Positions 25,242 through 54,849 of a stretch of DNA of 64,000 bases are shown here, in pieces. The stretch comes from Coprococcus phoceensis (lineage in GTDB: Bacteria; Bacillota; Clostridia; Lachnospirales; Lachnospiraceae). The notes under the pieces were generated by a model. The model did no database searches. It saw nothing but the letters and a program-made list of their open reading frames with translations, and was not told where the DNA came from. How positions within the stretch are numbered: the stretch's first letter is position 1; each line of letters starts with the position of its first letter. Position numbers and translations under genes: made by a program. The stretch covers positions 1,587,421 to 1,651,420 of the forward strand of contig NZ_FNWC01000007.1 in the NCBI RefSeq assembly GCF_900104635.1, in the 5' to 3' direction.

Positions 25242-27757
25242 ATGAGGTAAGGTTCAGCTCATCCTTTGCAGGACTTGCGTCCCCTCCCTCCCAAACCGCA
25301 CGTACACCTCTCGATGTATACGGCTTTCCGCTTATTGTATTTGCGGTATTAAGAATGAATCAGTTTATGACATTCGGGGCATACCACAAGAGTTTTCCTT
25401 CTCCTTTTGCGCATAAGGAGTACCCACTCCGCATTGCCCTTTAAGTCTTTTAGTTTCTTTACTTGATGGATTTCCAGATTTCTGCAATCCTTTCCACAGA
25501 GTTCACAGGTATGGCGTTCCACTCTCTGTTTCAGAGTGTTGGTTTTAGCGTATTTTGAGAATTGCGGAAGTTCGCTCACATTGTCAAACTTTGTAGCTGA
25601 TTCTTTTCGCTTAAACCCGTCTCTGTAAAAGGTCGTGGTTTTCCTTCCTGCTCTGGTATCGTATGCGATTGTAAACAGACCTCCAACACAGTATCTGCGC
25701 TTGATTTCGTGAACATTTGTTTTATACTTACAAGCAAATGTCTTGTACATACTGTACTTCATAAGATTGGCAAATCTGCCTATCTTAAAGGAATCATTCG
25801 CTATGGCATAATAGTTGTACAGTCCACGAACTTCCGCATTATATCTCGCCAGAATCTCTATATCGCTTTGATTTACCAGTTTTCCTCTGTGTAGGGCTAC
25901 AAATCTTTCTTTTCCGTTTTCGTTAATCTTGATTTTGATTGCATGATATTCCAGTAACTTTCCCACCCATTTTTCTCTGGGTACAAGTAATTTCACCACT
26001 CCTGCATTGCTTCTGATTTTGTATCCTCCTGCGGATTTCTTTAAATCCTGACTTCTGGATACCGTAATGTCATAGCCTAAAAATCTGGCTCTGTCTCCTG
26101 TATGCGTAACTTTGGTTTTGGTTTCGGACATTTCCAAATCCAGTTCTTCCCTGAGAAATCTGCCGACGTCAGCTTTCATCTGTTCTGCGTCCGCTTTGCT
26201 CCCAATTACTCCAATGATGAAATCATCAGCGTATCGGGTGTACTGAATCCGTTTATACGTCTCATCCAAAGGTTCGGTCGGAGTTAGCTGTCGTGTTTGC
26301 TTTTCAAGCATTTTCAAATGTTTATTGCGTTCCCAGCGTTCTTCTGGAGATAAATCCGCCCACTTCTTTTTGCCCATACATCTATAATAGGATGCCTTTT
26401 TGACAACTTTCTTGTAGTCGGAGTTCATTTGTTTCTTCTTTCCTCGGTTATATTTCTGTGCATATTCCTCCATAAATTTATCTAATTCGTGAAGGTACAC
26501 ATTTGCAAGCACTGGACTGACACCTGAACCCTGCGGTACTCCGCTGTATGTCCGATTGTACGTCCATTGCTCCATATAGCCTGCTTTTAGAAATTTCCAG
26601 ATGAGTTGTAGAAACATTTCATCATCAATACGTTTTCTCAGCAATCTGATGATTGTGTGGTGATTAAAACTGTCGAAGCAGGCGTGTATATCGCCCTCAA
26701 CAAACCAGTTCGTTCCCGTAAAGGTTTTCTGTATCTGGTATAATGCTGTCTGACAGCTTTTGTTTGGTCTGAACCCATGAGATGTTTTCTTAAACACAGG
26801 CTCATAAATGCTTTCTAAAATCATCTTCACTACTTCCTGCACCAGTTTGTCATTGCCCGACTGGATTCCCAACGGACGCTTTTTATTACTGTTTTTCTTA
26901 GCAATATATTCCCTGCGTGCAGGTTTTGGCAGGTAACTTTTATCTCGCATGGATTCAATAATCCTTTGGATTCTTTCGTCACTCATGCCATCAATAGTAG
27001 TTCCATCTGCACCGGCAGTCATACTGCCTGTGTTTGCATATATGTTTTTATATGCAAGCCAATAGAACTCTGGATTGTACAGATTCCGATATAATCTTTG
27101 AAACCTGTAAGATTCATTCTTTGACTTTTCCGTCAAACTACTTAATACTTGGATTGGATTTCTCAATGCCTCTCGCACCGTCCTTTCATATCGTATTAGT
27201 AAATAAGCTGCTCCCCTTCGCCATGTGAACGTCATTAACGTCTCAGACTACTATGGGAGCTGTGTGACCATGCCCGTTACCAGGTTTAGGTCATCCCCAG
27301 TTAGTATTTATGGAATTAGCGTTTCGTGTTGTCGGCACCGACTTTCGCCATTTACCCGCTGTCTTGCGGTTGTCCTTCCATGAGTATCGCTTGCTTTCAT
27401 AACTGCGAAATGAAACCAACATGGAATAGCATACGTTTCAATCCTTTTCGTATGCGGAGTGCGGATTCCCCCACTCTGGCTATCGTTCAGGCAGTTTAGC
27501 TTTGTACCTCATACACGAATTTTTATTCTTGAATTTTCAGATACACAGGATTAGTACCTTATCATTCAGGCTTTTATCCATTGACAAAAGCGACAACATG
27601 CTACACTCCCCTTCGGGTTTCCCCTCTCGGATAAGTTGTAGAATAATAGGCTGTGATTTTTCATCACTTGATACTTTTACCTACTGCTTGCTAAAGGCAG
27701 TATTCCATAAATACCACGCCGCCGAATTTATAATGCGCTGGCGACTTCTGGGCGCAC
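25242..27757 (-). mobile_element. Group II intron with encoded maturase, 2,516 bp
   Basis: Begins GTGCG at 27757 (minus), directly after the TGT codon for Cys480 of the coupling protein, and ends ...CCTCAT at 25242. Domain V is readable near 25,300: GCCGTATACATCGAGAGG, then GTGTACGTGCGGTTT. The last exon bases TAACTGT (IBS1) pair with GCAGTTA at 27406-27400 (six Watson-Crick pairs and one wobble), about 350 nt into the intron, as expected for EBS1. The 27,236-27,757 stretch without a gene is ribozyme domains I-III plus the start of IV. 25,242-25,348 is domains V and VI. Confidence 0.93.
25349..27166 (-). CDS. ltrA: Group II intron reverse transcriptase/maturase with HNH domain
   Basis: About 605 residues. 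Reverse transcriptase motifs: RPLGIQSGNDKLVQ, the GxPQGS element SGVPQGSGVSPVLAN, and YADDFIIGV (active site about 312-315). Maturase X domain with Y-rich LYNYYAIANDSFK, then a C-terminal HNH-type endonuclease with two Cys pairs (CELCG, CPECH). The usual HH of that domain reads HQ (EIHQVKKLKDL), so DNA cleavage may be altered. The start is chosen as TTG 27166 (MRNPIQVLSSL), which gives normal family length; an in-frame ATG at 27235 has no ribosome site. Needed to splice and move the intron. Confidence 0.92.
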   Translation of the reverse strand: MRNPIQVLSSLTEKSKNESYRFQRLYRNLYNPEFYWLAYKNIYANTGSMTAGADGTTIDGMSDERIQRIIESMRDKSYLPKPARREYIAKKNSNKKRPLGIQSGNDKLVQEVVKMILESIYEPVFKKTSHGFRPNKSCQTALYQIQKTFTGTNWFVEGDIHACFDSFNHHTIIRLLRKRIDDEMFLQLIWKFLKAGYMEQWTYNRTYSGVPQGSGVSPVLANVYLHELDKFMEEYAQKYNRGKKKQMNSDYKKVVKKASYYRCMGKKKWADLSPEERWERNKHLKMLEKQTRQLTPTEPLDETYKRIQYTRYADDFIIGVIGSKADAEQMKADVGRFLREELDLEMSETKTKVTHTGDRARFLGYDITVSRSQDLKKSAGGYKIRSNAGVVKLLVPREKWVGKLLEYHAIKIKINENGKERFVALHRGKLVNQSDIEILARYNAEVRGLYNYYAIANDSFKIGRFANLMKYSMYKTFACKYKTNVHEIKRRYCVGGLFTIAYDTRAGRKTTTFYRDGFKRKESATKFDNVSELPQFSKYAKTNTLKQRVERHTCELCGKDCRNLEIHQVKKLKDLKGNAEWVLLMRKRRRKTLVVCPECHKLIHS

Positions 27758-45878: not shown

Positions 45879-46931
45879 TTAACTGATTCTTTTAAGTTCT
45901 TCATCAAATAACTGCCCTGCTGATTTATACCCATGTATGCGCCTTGGATACTTATTTATCCACTCTTCCACTGCCTGTATTTCTTCCTCTGTCCGTCCGT
46001 CAAAATTTGTACCCTTTGGAACTCGGCGGCGTACCATTTTATTTGTTACCTCGTTTGTGCCACGCTCCCAACTGCTGTACGGGTGGCAATAATACATTTT
46101 GGTTCTTTTCCCCTCGCCTATCGCTGAACGCTCCAACTCTGCGCAATACGCAAACTCTGTGCCGTTGTCTACTGTGATACTCTTAAACACCGTCTTAAAC
46201 ATTTCGCCCCAGCGTTTCTCTAATCTGTCAACTGCTGCCACTACTGCCTCTGCACTGTGATCTGGCAATTTAAAAATAATTTCTGCTCGTGTCTTTCGCT
46301 CCGTGAGTGTCAGCAATGTATTTTTCGATTTCCCCCGCTGTCCTATTACGCTATCCATTTCCCAATGTCCGAACTCTTCCCGGTTGTTTATTGCTTCTGG
46401 TCTGTTTTCTATGCTTTCCCCTGCTTCTACCCTTTTCTGTTTCTTTACCTTATTATATTTGCGCTTTTTGTTCTTCTTTACTGGCAAATCCTTATTTGTT
46501 ACCTTTAAAAAGATTCCCTTATCAATATAGCTGTATACTGTAGTGGTGCATATTCTGGTTTGAAATTCTCCCCAGCGTCCCTCTGCTGTCAGTTCCCCTA
46601 TGATTGCGTCCGGGCTGTAATCTTCATTTATTATTTTGTCCTCTATGTAATTTGCCAGCTTAATATCATTTCCTATCTTTAATTGTGTTCCTCGCACTTT
46701 TAAATTTTCCTCATATTTCCGTTGTGCAAGGTCTGCGCTGTATCTCATTTCTCTTGTATAATCACTGTTCAAATGTTCATATTGCCCACGCTTCAACTCG
46801 TTATAAATCGTACTGCGGTGTACATTTAAAATCTCTGCAATCTCTACAACCTTGTGCCCTGCATTATACAAGGCTTCTAATCTGATTCTATCATTGTGTT
46901 TTAATTGTCTGCTACCCTTTTGATTTGCCAT
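45879..46931 (-). CDS. IS30-family DDE recombinase/transposase
   Basis: 350 residues. N-terminal HTH of IS30 type (IRLEALYNAGHKVVEIAEIL, VHRSTIYNELKRGQY), then an RNase H-like integrase core with Asp in HWEMDSVIGQRG, Asp in TVDNGTEFAYC and Glu in SSWERGTNE: the complete DDE triad at normal spacing. IS30 enzymes cut and paste or replicate DNA between short inverted repeats. I could not see a matching inverted-repeat pair close to the gene, and it is preceded by prophage-type small genes under a regulated promoter, so it may be the phage's own recombinase rather than a chance IS. Confidence 0.92.
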   Translation of the reverse strand: MANQKGSRQLKHNDRIRLEALYNAGHKVVEIAEILNVHRSTIYNELKRGQYEHLNSDYTREMRYSADLAQRKYEENLKVRGTQLKIGNDIKLANYIEDKIINEDYSPDAIIGELTAEGRWGEFQTRICTTTVYSYIDKGIFLKVTNKDLPVKKNKKRKYNKVKKQKRVEAGESIENRPEAINNREEFGHWEMDSVIGQRGKSKNTLLTLTERKTRAEIIFKLPDHSAEAVVAAVDRLEKRWGEMFKTVFKSITVDNGTEFAYCAELERSAIGEGKRTKMYYCHPYSSWERGTNEVTNKMVRRRVPKGTNFDGRTEEEIQAVEEWINKYPRRIHGYKSAGQLFDEELKRIS

Positions 46932-51801: not shown

Positions 51802-52107
51802 CTACTGCTCCATTAACATTTCAAGTGTGATCTGCGTTTCTGTCTGCTGCATCTGCAATGCAGAAATTTCCTGCATGATTGCCTCTGTAGTTGGGCTTAA
51901 TAATTCTGCCTGCTGGCTCTCATACTCTTCTTTATCCTGCGTACATTCTTCATATACCCACTTTTCGCCTGCCTTGCTTTCCTCATTTTCGTTGCTCATT
52001 GGTACTCTTTCAATATTGCGCCTCTTATATACAAGGTGCGGGCTGCTTGTTATATCCAGCTCTTTCGGTTTTTCTTCTGCGGTGCTTTCTGCTGCGTACC
52101 ATTCCAT
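51802..52107 (-). CDS. Phage tail-region protein overlapping the RT gene, 101 aa
   Basis: Starts MEWYAAESTAEEKPKELDIT, within the last 83 bp of the reverse transcriptase gene but in another frame, with GGAG 10 nt upstream. Acidic, helical, Gln/Glu-rich at the C-terminus (EISALQMQQTETQITLEMLM). It precedes xkdX, where tail accessory proteins are common. It does not resemble the DGR accessory protein Avd, which is basic and helical. Confidence 0.7.
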   Translation of the reverse strand: MEWYAAESTAEEKPKELDITSSPHLVYKRRNIERVPMSNENEESKAGEKWVYEECTQDKEEYESQQAELLSPTTEAIMQEISALQMQQTETQITLEMLMEQ

Positions 52108-53188
52108 TGCGTATGTTCTCCTTTCTTGCGTGCTTTGAAACCAGCGTTTTTAGCACTTTCACTTTTACATATGGTTTTATGTATCTTTCGTAATATGCGT
52201 AAGTGTCACTATGCCAAATCCAGCCCAGCCTAGAAAGTAAACTACCTGCATCTACCCACGTAATCTTTTCTTTTCGCTTTACCCGGTTGACCTTGCCACG
52301 TATGCCCTGTAATATGCTCTTTCGTATCGTTGTTCTATCTCTATAAAATTTGAACCCCATAAAGTCCAGTGGTCTGCCTCTGCGCTTGCCTTTTCTGTCT
52401 ACATAGTCAAAACGGAATACCTGCCAGTTTTTCTTTATTTGTAATCCCAGCTCTTCCGTTATAAATTTCTCAATTTGCAGCCTCGCTTTATGCAGTTCCT
52501 TTTTATTGTTTCCGAATATAACCATATCGTCCATATACCGTATGTAATGCTTTACATGTAACTGCTCCATGATAAAGTGATCTAGTGGCTGCAAATAAAA
52601 ATTACCGAACCACTGTGACGGGTAATAGCCCAATGGCAGCCCCGGTTTATGGCTGTCTATGATAATAAATAATTTCTTTAGCAACTCCCTATCTCTGATT
52701 TTCCGTTTTAGTGCTTTCTTTAATCTTCTGTGCGGCACACTCTCAAAGAAATGCCGTATATCCAGCTTATATATGTACTTGCAGTTTCTGCTATCCTCTC
52801 TTATCCACCGTTCTACGGTTCTTTTTCCTCTGTGTACACCTTTTCCCGGTATACTCCCGTACACATGGTAATACATTCCCCTCATTGCAATCGGCACAAA
52901 TACCCGCATTACGGAATGGTGCGCCATTTGCTCATACATATATTGTGGCTTTACTATCTTTCGTGTTTTCTTACAAGAATTTTCCTGTATGATTTTTGTT
53001 TTATGTCTTTTCGGTGCAAATGTATTGTTCTTTAATCTTTTATCCAGTTCTTTTCTGTAGTGTTCTACATTCGCTTTTACTATCTGCGCCTGTTCTTTCT
53101 TACTCTTTCCTTTTGATGCATTGTATATATCTTTTATTTGTTCCTCTGGTATATACAGTTGTTCGCTTACGCCATTAAAACTAATCAT
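52025..53188 (-). CDS. Diversity-generating retroelement reverse transcriptase
   Basis: 387 residues. Reverse transcriptase motifs in order: KLDIRHFFESVP (first catalytic Asp about 143), LPLGYYPSQWFGNF (about 184), where DGR enzymes carry GxxxSQ rather than the QGxxxSP of intron enzymes, RYMDDMVIFG (YMDD about 218-221), and LDFMGFKFY. No maturase or endonuclease domain. The start is chosen at ATG 53188; a TTG at 53236 is also open. It lies 125-170 bp after the TR. It would copy TR RNA with adenine-specific errors. The 3' end overlaps the 101-aa gene. Confidence 0.95.
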   Translation of the reverse strand: MISFNGVSEQLYIPEEQIKDIYNASKGKSKKEQAQIVKANVEHYRKELDKRLKNNTFAPKRHKTKIIQENSCKKTRKIVKPQYMYEQMAHHSVMRVFVPIAMRGMYYHVYGSIPGKGVHRGKRTVERWIREDSRNCKYIYKLDIRHFFESVPHRRLKKALKRKIRDRELLKKLFIIIDSHKPGLPLGYYPSQWFGNFYLQPLDHFIMEQLHVKHYIRYMDDMVIFGNNKKELHKARLQIEKFITEELGLQIKKNWQVFRFDYVDRKGKRRGRPLDFMGFKFYRDRTTIRKSILQGIRGKVNRVKRKEKITWVDAGSLLSRLGWIWHSDTYAYYERYIKPYVKVKVLKTLVSKHARKENIRNGMVRSRKHRRRKTERAGYNKQPAPCI

Positions 53189-53360
53189 TCTTATTCTCTT
53201 TCTTATCGCCTTGCAGTAATTCGCCACGCTATACAACTAAGGGTTTCGCCCCGGCTACCATACTGCACCTTTTGCGGCTGTATTTTCACTTTCAGCGGTA
53301 TTTCAACCGCCAGCGGTGTAGGAATTTCCGGGGCATTTGGTTAATCTTCCATAATTTGAT

Positions 53361-53475
53361 AAGAATGACCGGGCGCAATGTTCCAGTTCGCATTGCCAGC
53401 GGTGTTGTTCAAGTTCACGTAAGCCCCGCAATTCAGCCCGTTGTTGCAGTTGCCGCCCACAAGAGGCACAGCCAC
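53361..53475 (-). repeat. DGR template repeat (TR), 115 bp
   Basis: A near copy of the 3' part of the variable protein gene. Its coding strand holds 24 adenines, mostly in AAC/AAT codons (AACTGCAACAAC, GTGAACTTGAACAAC), the design that lets adenine mutation explore many residues without stop codons. Compared with VR, 13 adenines differ and none of the 91 other positions do. It lies between the variable gene and the RT gene and has no start codon of its own. Confidence 0.96.
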
Positions 53476-53537
53476 GCCCCGGAAATCCCCTATTATATTC
53501 TCTCTACCGTTATATTTTCGTATGTTGTACTTTCCTG

Positions 53538-53555
53538 CGGGGGAAAAATCCCCCG
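53538..53555. other. DGR target-site hairpin/cruciform
   Basis: CGGGGGA / TCCCCCG, a 7-bp perfect stem with an AAAA (TTTT) loop, 17 bp after the variable gene stop and 39 bp downstream of VR. Known DGRs need such a hairpin after the VR to mark it as the recipient. It has no T-run after it, so it is not a terminator. Confidence 0.7.
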
Positions 53556-53571
53556 TTCCCCCTTTTGCTGC

Positions 53572-54849
53572 TTACGCAGCGTTAGGCATTTTGCAAGAAA
53601 GACCGGGCGCAATGATCCAGTTCGCACCGCCAGCGGTGTTGCCCAAGTCCACGCAAGCCCCGCAACACAGCCCGCGGTTGCAGCTGCCGCCCACAAGAGG
53701 CACAGCCACAATGCCCGTATTCAACCAAAAGTAATCACACAAATATGTTGAGCTGCTACCTGTATATGTTACCGGGAAACGTCCCGCTTTCGTCATAACA
53801 GTATCTTTCATGTAACCACCAACACTACCGCTTACTCCGTAATCTGCAAAATCCAGTACTTTTTCAAATCCTGCGCCAGTTAAATTGCAATCCCCATACG
53901 GCTGCACTTTCACAACACCTTTATCGCATACCATTTGACAGATACGCTCCCACTGATCGCCCCACATTGCCTCTGTATGGAATACCTTAATCTGCTTGTT
54001 TCCGGCATTATATCCGTAAAACTGCCCTTTATCGTCCATACTGCCTGAGGCAAGTACTCCGTAATACTTCGTTGAATCATTCACATAACCGCTCATATTT
54101 CCATTGCCGTATGCTTCTTGTAAATCCTCTGTTTTTGCCATAATCTTTAACAGTGCAATAATATAATTCCATTCCCACCAGCTTGTATGCTCCCATACAT
54201 CGCCGTTTGCTTTAATGTATGTACGTTCCTGCGTTGCATTTTTGCTTGCCATTGGCTGCTGCCCGCTTAAAGACCTTGCCACGTTGCTTAATAATGTAGG
54301 TGTATAGATTCTGCGGTAAAATCCCTCTCTGATAATTCCGTCTGGTGCAGTTCTGTGGTATGCGTTGTACCCGTCATCATATTTTACATTGCTCCAAATG
54401 ATATATTCGTCTGTAGCTGTTTCGTACTGGCACAGCCAGCCGCCCATAAATGCTGCCATTGCATTACCTGCATAATCCACGTTTGCCGCATCACTTGCCG
54501 TTGTACCGTCTGCCTTTAATGCGTAATTTGTTGCCAGTAACTTGTAGTCCTCTGTGCCGTCAAATTTAACCATGCAAGGGTAGTTATTCTTTACAAATTC
54601 AACATTGCCCCAGCTACCATAGTTAAATGTGCCGTCCGTATAATTCATTGCCGCAGGTGTCATGCCTACAGCATCATATAAGTATGTTACCCGGCTCTTT
54701 TTTCCGCTGTCGCTCTTATTGATTTTGATACCATAGCGTACCGCTTTTTTATGTTCCCCGCCGCTTTCCTCTAATGCAGCCAGAATTGCGTTTGTATTTG
54801 CGTGTGTACTGTCCAATGTTTCTTTATCTGCTAAATAAATTCTTGCCAT
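53572..54849 (-). CDS. DGR variable protein, putative phage receptor-binding protein
   Basis: 425 residues, AAGGAG before the ATG. The protein is rich in Tyr, Gly, Asn and Trp, with a C-terminal lectin-like region: KVLDFADYGVSGSVGGYMKD, FPVTYTGSSSTYLCDYFWLN, then VAVPLVGGS, ANWIIAPGLS. The last 38 or so residues are the VR; variable positions are 389, 392, 395, 399, 401, 403, 408, 412 and 417. DGR targets usually have a C-type-lectin fold with the changing residues on the binding face. Placed between the BppU-like baseplate gene and the RT, it probably forms the tip that contacts the host. Confidence 0.92.
   Translation of the reverse strand: MARIYLADKETLDSTHANTNAILAALEESGGEHKKAVRYGIKINKSDSGKKSRVTYLYDAVGMTPAAMNYTDGTFNYGSWGNVEFVKNNYPCMVKFDGTEDYKLLATNYALKADGTTASDAANVDYAGNAMAAFMGGWLCQYETATDEYIIWSNVKYDDGYNAYHRTAPDGIIREGFYRRIYTPTLLSNVARSLSGQQPMASKNATQERTYIKANGDVWEHTSWWEWNYIIALLKIMAKTEDLQEAYGNGNMSGYVNDSTKYYGVLASGSMDDKGQFYGYNAGNKQIKVFHTEAMWGDQWERICQMVCDKGVVKVQPYGDCNLTGAGFEKVLDFADYGVSGSVGGYMKDTVMTKAGRFPVTYTGSSSTYLCDYFWLNTGIVAVPLVGGSCNRGLCCGACVDLGNTAGGANWIIAPGLSCKMPNAA
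53595..53709 (-). repeat. DGR variable repeat (VR), 115 bp
   Basis: Codons 381-418 of the variable protein. Nine codons differ from TR, all at TR adenines: AAC to AGC, AAC to CGC, AAT to TGT, TAC to TGC, AAC to GAC, AAC to GGC, AAT to GGT, AAC to ATC and CAT to CTT (nine A-to-G, one A-to-C, three A-to-T). This is the product of at least one past homing event. Confidence 0.96.

What the first reader, a model, noticed from the sequence alone, without database searches (positions are those of the whole stretch)
52025..54849. Complete diversity-generating retroelement in the prophage tail module
Seen directly: a variable gene, a 115-bp VR at its 3' end, a matching 115-bp TR, a hairpin and an RT with the DGR form of motif 4 (LPLGYYPSQW). 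TR and VR differ at 13 positions, all at adenines of the TR coding strand (13 of 24 adenines; 0 of 91 other bases). Family knowledge: BPP-1-type DGRs make phage receptor-binding proteins variable. Inference: this phage can switch host receptor.
Basis: partly seen in the sequence, partly recalled or inferred. Interest (0 to 1): 0.9.

Follow-up and report, generated by a model that had tools for sequence, protein, structure and literature searches.

The report
Two-target diversity-generating retroelement in prophage
A gut-bacterial prophage carries a known kind of mutation machine that keeps rewriting the tip of a predicted tail protein, and the same machine also rewrites a second, shortened copy of that protein encoded about 24 kb away among the phage's early genes.

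Summary
TR 53361-53475 and VR 53595-53709 differ at 13 of 115 positions, all TR adenines (chance 5e-11), beside a DGR-type RT and a tail-protein gene. It is a real diversity-generating retroelement, but not BPP-1-type in layout: no avd was found. It fits the 'target-TR-RT, no avd' lineage 3 of the literature.
The same TR serves VR2, about 24.4 kb away outside the window, in an N-terminally shortened paralogue (VP2) among early genes. VR2 is present in all three prophages compared: this one and its two closest relatives.
Both targets changed after strains diverged: VR1 at 13 of 24 TR-adenine positions and 0 of 91 others, VR2 at 12 of 24 and 0 of 91. Database proteins agree.
The TR transcript is closed by a stem found across the clade, with a G-U bias that points to RNA pairing; one Avd-bearing group has a similar stem, placed differently.
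Receptor switching stays an inference. Multi-VR and Avd-less DGRs are known; the early-module second target and the stem are the fresh parts.

The parts
53572..54849 (-). variable protein gene VP1 (425 aa): tail-type protein with DGR variable-protein fold, VR at its 3' end
53595..53709 (-). VR1, 115 nt, codes for residues 381-419 of VP1
   Evidence: 13 of 13 differences from the TR at TR adenines; 13 of 24 A and 0 of 91 other positions differ from strain JCM 15917
53567..53580 (-). target hairpin 1 after VR1 (5-bp stem, GTAA loop)
   Evidence: relatives keep a stem here with changed sequence (by eye)
53538..53555 (-). target hairpin 2 after VR1 (7-bp stem); the same element follows VR2
   Evidence: a hairpin after the VR in 47 of 84 loci, after the TR in 4 of 84, in shuffled VR flanks 5 of 84
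53476..53489 (-). 5' arm of the stem that closes the TR transcript
   Evidence: inverted repeat; clade-wide tests
53361..53475 (-). TR, 115 nt, 24 adenines, all in codon positions 1 or 2
   Evidence: same as the TR of JCM 15917 at all 111 positions compared, apart from a G-run indel
53321..53334 (-). 3' arm of the closing stem
   Evidence: 17-bp stem in MFE and centroid folds
53201..53320 (-). structured spacer RNA between TR and RT (Rfam RT-4 / RT-18 type)
   Evidence: RF03025 62.5 bits, E 2.8e-10, below its gathering score 73.5; RF03021 40.4 bits, just below 41.3
52025..53188 (-). DGR reverse transcriptase (387 aa from the inferred ATG; 403 aa from the TTG at 53236)
   Evidence: PF00078 E 5.1e-14, PHROG 1423 E 3e-92; LPLGYYPSQW and YMDD

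Best explanation
This is a working, Avd-less phage DGR with one template and two targets. Shown: one TR, an RT of the DGR type, a conserved RNA between them, and two VRs that differ from the TR and between strains almost only at TR adenines. Inferred from the BPP-1 mechanism: the TR transcript, held by a closing stem and the RT-4/RT-18-type spacer RNA, is copied by the RT with errors at adenines, and the cDNA replaces VR1 or VR2, guided by the shared 3' sequence and the hairpins that follow the VRs but not the TR. The rewritten codons would form the binding face of a lectin-type domain at the C-terminus of VP1 (tail module) and VP2 (early module). VP1 is most likely a tail-tip receptor-binding protein. 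VP2 lacks VP1's first 25-35 residues and lies outside the tail module; I think it is a second ligand-binding protein and a partner in gene conversion with VP1.
Against: No reads, expression or homing data. VR2 in this genome has one extra nucleotide relative to the TR that shifts its frame, so this copy of VP2 ends abnormally. VR residues are modelled with low confidence (pLDDT about 25-40), and Foldseek alone gave no PDB match at E <= 0.001 (TaqVP 0.011). Absence of Avd rests on profile searches. The RNA fold of this one sequence is only mildly better than shuffles (z -1.31; 26 of 200 as good). That VP1 binds a receptor is not shown.
Confidence: 0.9

Rival explanations
1. A decayed DGR: past activity left diverged repeats, but the element no longer works.
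For: VR2 of this genome is frame-shifted. 20 of 127 related RT loci showed no DGR-like repeat to my finder; I did not sort how many of these are cut by contig ends.
Against: RT open with YMDD; TR the same between strains at 111 compared positions while VR1 and VR2 differ at 13 and 12 of 24 adenine positions with no other substitution; spacer RNA and hairpins kept.
Confidence: 0.08
2. VP2 and VR2 are a passive leftover (a duplicated tail gene fragment), not a second functional target.
For: VP2 lies outside the tail module and lacks VP1's N-terminal residues; this copy is frame-shifted; of 397 family genomes 7 held a relative and only the window's own held more than one.
Against: Same neighbourhood and shortened start in the three prophages compared, with the frame kept in the other two. 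A 390-aa intact form has its own database clusters, one with 1672 members (P0054). Entropy is concentrated at TR-A codons in 68 VP2-like proteins.
Confidence: 0.2
3. The closing stem is a DNA feature (inverted repeats around a movable TR cassette) and not an RNA structure.
For: Inverted repeats flank the TR directly.
Against: In a search blind to wobble pairs, mismatches inside stems (score >= 22) were G-T 51, A-C 4, other 27; in mismatched-locus control stems (score >= 18) G-T 24, A-C 18 of 113. Pairing in the TR-to-RT transcript gives that bias; DNA symmetry does not.
Confidence: 0.06

Closest known systems
Avd-less DGRs of lineage 3 (Wu et al., as described in passages of PMC7290462 on crAssphage LMMB)
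   Same: target-TR-RT order; no avd; lectin-type target; in this clade 92 of 99 loci leave no gap of 300 nt (VR-TR) or 350 nt (TR-RT) for it
   Different: here a second, remote target in the early module; RT placement in lineage 3 not tested by a tree against Wu's set
Bordetella phage BPP-1 DGR (mtd-avd-TR-brt)
   Same: adenine-biased TR/VR differences (18 of 22 at A in my finder), VR at the 3' end of a tail gene, structured spacer between TR and RT (RF03022 in BPP-1); hairpin after the VR (PMC3240598 passages)
   Different: BPP-1 has avd and one annotated VR in the stretch seen; here no avd was found, the spacer is of RT-4/RT-18 type, and the closing stem's 3' arm begins about 25 nt after the TR
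Two-VR DGRs of Faecalibacterium prophages Lelie, Lagaffe_CP and CP11 (PMC11792537, section 30 and passages)
   Same: gut prophages with one DGR and two variable regions; in Lagaffe_CP the two targets are homologous; both regions vary across cognate genomes of Lagaffe_CP and CP11
   Different: here the second target is N-terminally shortened, sits in an early operon and forms mosaics with the first; I did not compare with their genomes
TaqVP, Thermus aquaticus DGR variable protein (PDB 5vf4)
   Same: best and far-leading VIA-align match for VP1 and VP2 models
   Different: 11-12% identity; VR loops not reliably modelled here

Membership tests
Diversity-generating retroelement | TR and VR near-identical, differences at TR adenines | tested here: met
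   13 of 13; VR2 15 of 15 substitutions, plus one indel
Diversity-generating retroelement | RT of the DGR type beside the TR | tested here: met
   PHROG 1423 E 3e-92, LPLGYYPSQW and YMDD; 107 of 127 loci (related RTs, with this genome's second DGR) also show A-biased repeats. That the motif-4 form marks DGR RTs is recalled
Diversity-generating retroelement | VR in a gene for a ligand-binding-type domain | tested here: met
Diversity-generating retroelement | ongoing VR diversification | tested here: met
   strain comparison and database entropy; variation within one clone not testable without reads
Diversity-generating retroelement | RT-dependent homing | not testable with these tools
   needs culture
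BPP-1-type DGR cassette | avd gene | tested here: not met
   no hit over cut-off to PF05635 or PF22296 in the own genome (best E 0.36 and 0.108); Avd-like ORF in 1 of 101 loci of this clade, against 53 of 53, 72 of 73 and 7 of 7 in three Avd groups
Lineage 3 DGR (PMC7290462 passages) | target-TR-RT order without avd | tested here: met
Lineage 3 DGR (PMC7290462 passages) | RT falls in lineage 3 on a tree | not tested
   the reference RT set was not at hand

The most novel reading that the evidence does not exclude
One DGR runs a two-gene system: a tail-mounted variable protein (VP1) and an early-module, N-terminally shortened twin (VP2) that is not mounted on the tail. VP2 is diversified from the same template and acts outside the virion (for example masking or sampling host surfaces in the lysogen) and as a reservoir that trades blocks with VP1 by gene conversion. 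The RT works without Avd on a TR locked in a closing RNA stem that sets the ends of the cDNA, a task that in BPP-1 is partly given to the avd message.
Probability: 0.2. Interest if true: 0.75.

Novelty: new member of a known kind. Interest (0 to 1): 0.45.

Why it matters
It shows a DGR whose target proteins have large metagenome clusters diversifying two paralogous lectin-type proteins from one template, one of them outside the tail module, which makes the open question of why some phages keep two DGR targets testable. The conserved stem around the TR gives a concrete, testable RNA part for Avd-less DGRs.

Tried and rejected
Rejected: 'the closing stem is special to Avd-less DGRs and replaces Avd'. 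In the first windows (45/60 nt) it looked so: 52 of 85 loci here against 3 of 32, 0 of 49 and 0 of 6 in the BPP-1-, ACA1- and hankyphage-like groups. Wider windows then showed a stem in the Avd-bearing ACA1-like group, with its 3' arm 50-59 nt after the TR in 27 of 49 against 9 of 294 controls. The BPP-1-like group gave only a weak sign (6 of 32 against 9 of 192 at 60-69 nt).

Led nowhere or weak: Pfam gave VP1 only one match below its cut-off, NCBIfam nothing for VP1 or VP2, and sequence search of solved structures no convincing relative (best E 0.17). Foldseek's best PDB match for VP1 is TaqVP at E 0.011, none at 0.001 or better. The DNA of the cassette has two distant matches among 50,697 phage records. 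RNA folding energy of the single TR RNA is not exceptional. Cross-locus control stems have similar median gaps (4 and 23 nt) to real ones (3 and 25 nt), though a wider spread, so the medians alone prove little. A longer, more basic RT C-terminal part in this clade (median 153 residues from YxDD, net charge +22, against 116/+6 in BPP-1-like and 128/+15 in ACA1-like; hankyphage-like 217/+13) is only suggestive as an Avd substitute. Most VP1/VP2 mosaics looked at lie on short contigs and may be assembly joins; P0002, P0039 and P0040 lie on contigs of 36, 104 and 21 kb, and for P0039 and P0040 shared ancestry could also explain the pattern. In the VIA-align second look only TaqVP stood clearly above background for both proteins; absence of Mtd or TvpA from those lists excludes nothing. 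Only three prophages bear on VR2: of 8 records searched with this TR, 4 matched, the two close ones three times each, two others once each; that search could not show a VR2 made from a diverged TR.

Rows dropped before counts: 20 of 127 RT loci without a DGR-like repeat; then repeats under 90 nt, under 75% of differences at A, or a VR-TR gap of 700 nt or more, leaving 101, plus this window and the second DGR = 103, of which 85 non-redundant; this window's copy is represented there by L055. Of 174 Avd-group loci 133 gave a usable TR/VR. Of 702 VP1 homologues 120 were listed; 28 and 68 were used, sorted by length alone, so a few mosaics are among the 68. Eleven of 121 small ORFs were not put in the Pfam scan: one with a bad coordinate and ten near-duplicates or overlaps left out by hand.
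Full report
Observation. The DNA is as described. TR 53361-53475 and VR 53595-53709 (both minus strand) align without gaps over 115 nt with 13 differences, all at the TR's 24 adenines; the chance of that if 13 changes fell at random is 5.1e-11. The TR adenines are all in codon positions 1 or 2. RT 52025-53236 carries YMDD and LPLGYYPSQW; the ATG at 53188 is the likelier start, because relative L055 keeps it in frame (judged by eye). VP1, the variable gene, is 53572-54849.

Surroundings. Homology to the prophage of [Ruminococcus] faecis JCM 15917 runs from about window 45.7 kb to 81.8 kb in extended coordinates, so the prophage extends beyond the window. Genes seen include lysin, RT, VP1, a BppU-like protein, tail endopeptidase, Dit and tape measure in the window, and capsid, portal, terminase, ParA, a rolling-circle-type Rep and an SSB-like gene beyond it.

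A second target. Searching the own genome with the TR region gave four places: the TR, VR1, a third match at C7:1665324-1665446, and one belonging to another DGR at C7:1214350. The third is VR2. Against the TR it has 15 changed adenines, no changed base among the other 91, and one extra nucleotide. It lies in VP2, a paralogue of VP1 (L139:14328-15476, minus) beside an SSB-like gene; homology to VP1 begins near VP1 residue 35, so VP2 lacks roughly the first 25-35 residues. The extra nucleotide shifts the frame of this copy. The gene lies in the same place with a shortened start in JCM 15917 and in IMG/VR prophage UViG_2788500232, where the frame is kept in both; in all three VR2 is about 24.4 kb from the TR. 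Six further, more distant records searched with this TR gave one match (two of them) or none (four), which tests little because their TRs differ. VR2 is followed by the same hairpin-forming element as VR1. PMC12875486 (passages seen) mentions slippage as a cause of insertions or deletions within AAC repeats, there in multiples of three; the extra nucleotide here lies in an AAC-rich stretch, so a slip in copying is a fair but unproven guess for its origin.

Activity. Between this genome and JCM 15917 the long collinear matches of the prophage are 92-95.5% identical. VR1 differs at 13 of 24 TR-adenine positions and 0 of 91 others; VR2 at 12 of 24 and 0 of 91; the TRs are the same at all 111 compared positions. 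JCM 15917 has GGGG runs lengthened by three G at several places, counted as indels and probably an assembly fault. Among VP1 homologues (702 found, 120 listed), the nearest, P0001, whose cluster has 1906 members, differs from VP1 at 11 of 425 residues: 10 in the VR, 9 of them at TR-A codons. Mean column entropy at TR-A codons, other VR codons and the rest is 2.35, 0.49 and 0.82 bits for 28 VP1-like proteins, and 2.31, 0.17 and 0.37 for 68 VP2-like ones. Both genes thus look like real targets in nature. Of 397 genomes drawn from the family, 7 hold a relative at E <= 1e-30, and only the window's own holds more than one, so the pair is rare among the species genomes held although its proteins have large metagenome clusters.

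Exchange between the targets. P0002 (40 members, 36-kb contig) is VP1 with a block of 13 consecutive informative sites of VP2 type. P0039 and P0040 (104- and 21-kb contigs) have VP2-type ends and VP1-type blocks between; there, shared ancestry is an alternative. Six further mosaics examined lie on contigs of 1.4 to 6.5 kb and could be assembly errors. Gene conversion between the targets is the simplest reading of P0002.

No Avd. The own genome has no match over cut-off to PF05635 or PF22296. In the clade, VR-TR gaps have a median of 139 nt and TR-RT gaps of 133 nt; 7 of 99 loci have a VR-TR gap of 300 nt or a TR-RT gap of 350 nt or more. Of 110 small ORFs near these RTs one matched bAvd, one 23S_rRNA_IVP and one HRDC. 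An Avd profile found one in 1 of 101 loci of this clade against 53 of 53, 72 of 73 and 7 of 7 in BPP-1-, ACA1- and hankyphage-like groups. PMC7290462 (passages seen) states that about a quarter of DGRs have no accessory homologue and that lineage 3 has target-TR-RT order without avd, so this is a known form.

RNA. The TR-RT spacer matches Rfam RT-4 (62.5 bits, E 2.8e-10) and RT-18 (40.4 bits), both under their gathering scores. RT-18 is over gathering in 8 of 12 sources, one of them this genome's second DGR; the two closest relatives, L009 and L055, gave nothing over gathering. Phage FP_Epona has RT-4 at 124 bits, LBR48 RT-18, jmh42_hp RT-3, and BPP-1's spacer is RF03022, Phage_DGR. Directly outside the TR, arms 53476-53489 and 53321-53334 pair and form a 17-bp stem in the MFE and centroid folds. 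UViG_2788500232 keeps the stem with paired changes (by eye). With one scoring rule for real and mismatched flanks, a stem of score >= 24 is found in 52 of 85 non-redundant loci against 22 of 850 cross-locus pairings, with median gaps of 3 nt before and 25 nt after the TR; the few control stems have similar medians but a wider spread. With Watson-Crick-only scoring it is 27 of 85 against 4 of 850, and 1 of 84 around the VR. Mismatches inside real stems (score >= 22) are G-T 51, A-C 4, others 27; in control stems (score >= 18) G-T 24 and A-C 18 of 113. That points to pairing in the sense transcript. A stem with its 3' arm 50-59 nt after the TR occurs in 27 of 49 ACA1-like, Avd-bearing DGRs against 9 of 294 controls, so the stem is a DGR feature with clade-specific geometry and not an Avd substitute. 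A hairpin follows the VR in 47 of 84 loci, the TR in 4 of 84 and shuffled VR flanks in 5 of 84; PMC3240598 (passages seen) describes such hairpins for other phage DGRs.

How it most likely works. By analogy with BPP-1 (passages of PMC12875486 and PMC3240598; a 2025 structural paper that I recall was not held), spacer RNA recruits the RT and primes cDNA at the TR's 3' end, adenines are miscopied, copying ends near the TR's 5' edge, and cDNA replaces VR1 or VR2 at hairpin-marked sites. In this clade the closing stem begins a median of 3 nt before the TR, where it could stop the RT; that is inference.

Known or new. Multi-VR DGRs are common: 271 of 948 in PMC6642488 (passages). Two-target gut phages are described in PMC11792537 (section 30 and passages) and PMC10743442 (passages), remote targets for Treponema denticola in PMC4891356 (passages), and wide DGR activity in PMC8144416 (passages). 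I did not see the early-module twin or the TR-closing stem in the listings of library searches or in the passages opened, but subscription papers are not held, so neither can be called unpublished. Verdict: a real, well-supported member of a known kind with an informative second target.

Noticed in passing
window 45879-46931 and prophage ends near 45.7 kb and 81.8 kb (extended): An IS30-like DDE transposase ORF (HTH_38, and rve below its cut-off; the IS30 label is recalled) lies at the prophage's left end and in the matching DNA of two relatives; no integrase was seen among 25 prophage ORFs scanned (not all ORFs), and the prophages here and in JCM 15917 lie in different sites flanked by different A/T-rich direct repeats of about 15-17 bp (by eye): this phage may integrate by transposition.
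   Followed up: partly
L140 (G000:C7:1206000-1220000): A second DGR in the same genome: TR/VR of 118 nt with 11 of 11 differences at TR adenines, an RT and a VP1-like gene.
   Followed up: partly
window 53201-53320 and loci L157-L166: Rfam families RT-3, RT-4 and RT-18 (and weakly RT-17, below gathering) fall in the TR-RT spacer of DGRs, the slot of RF03022 Phage_DGR in BPP-1: they look like one functional class.
   Followed up: partly
L009, L153 (R. faecis JCM 15917 assembly): Several GGGG runs read as GGGGGGG, a likely assembly artefact.
   Followed up: no
window 25349-27235: A 628-aa ORF with a reverse transcriptase domain matched in two pieces, by eye a group II intron protein with a zinc-finger-like tail.
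   Followed up: no
window 53306-53319 and 53392-53405: A 14-nt stretch of the spacer repeats part of the TR/VR; it may be chance or an old TR trace.
   Followed up: no
P0013: A 398-aa homologue on a 6.5-kb contig ends in what looks like the unmutated TR sequence in frame, as if VR and TR had recombined, or by an assembly join.
   Followed up: no
L017, L068, L128: Related DGR loci with two or three A-biased VR copies for one TR.
   Followed up: no
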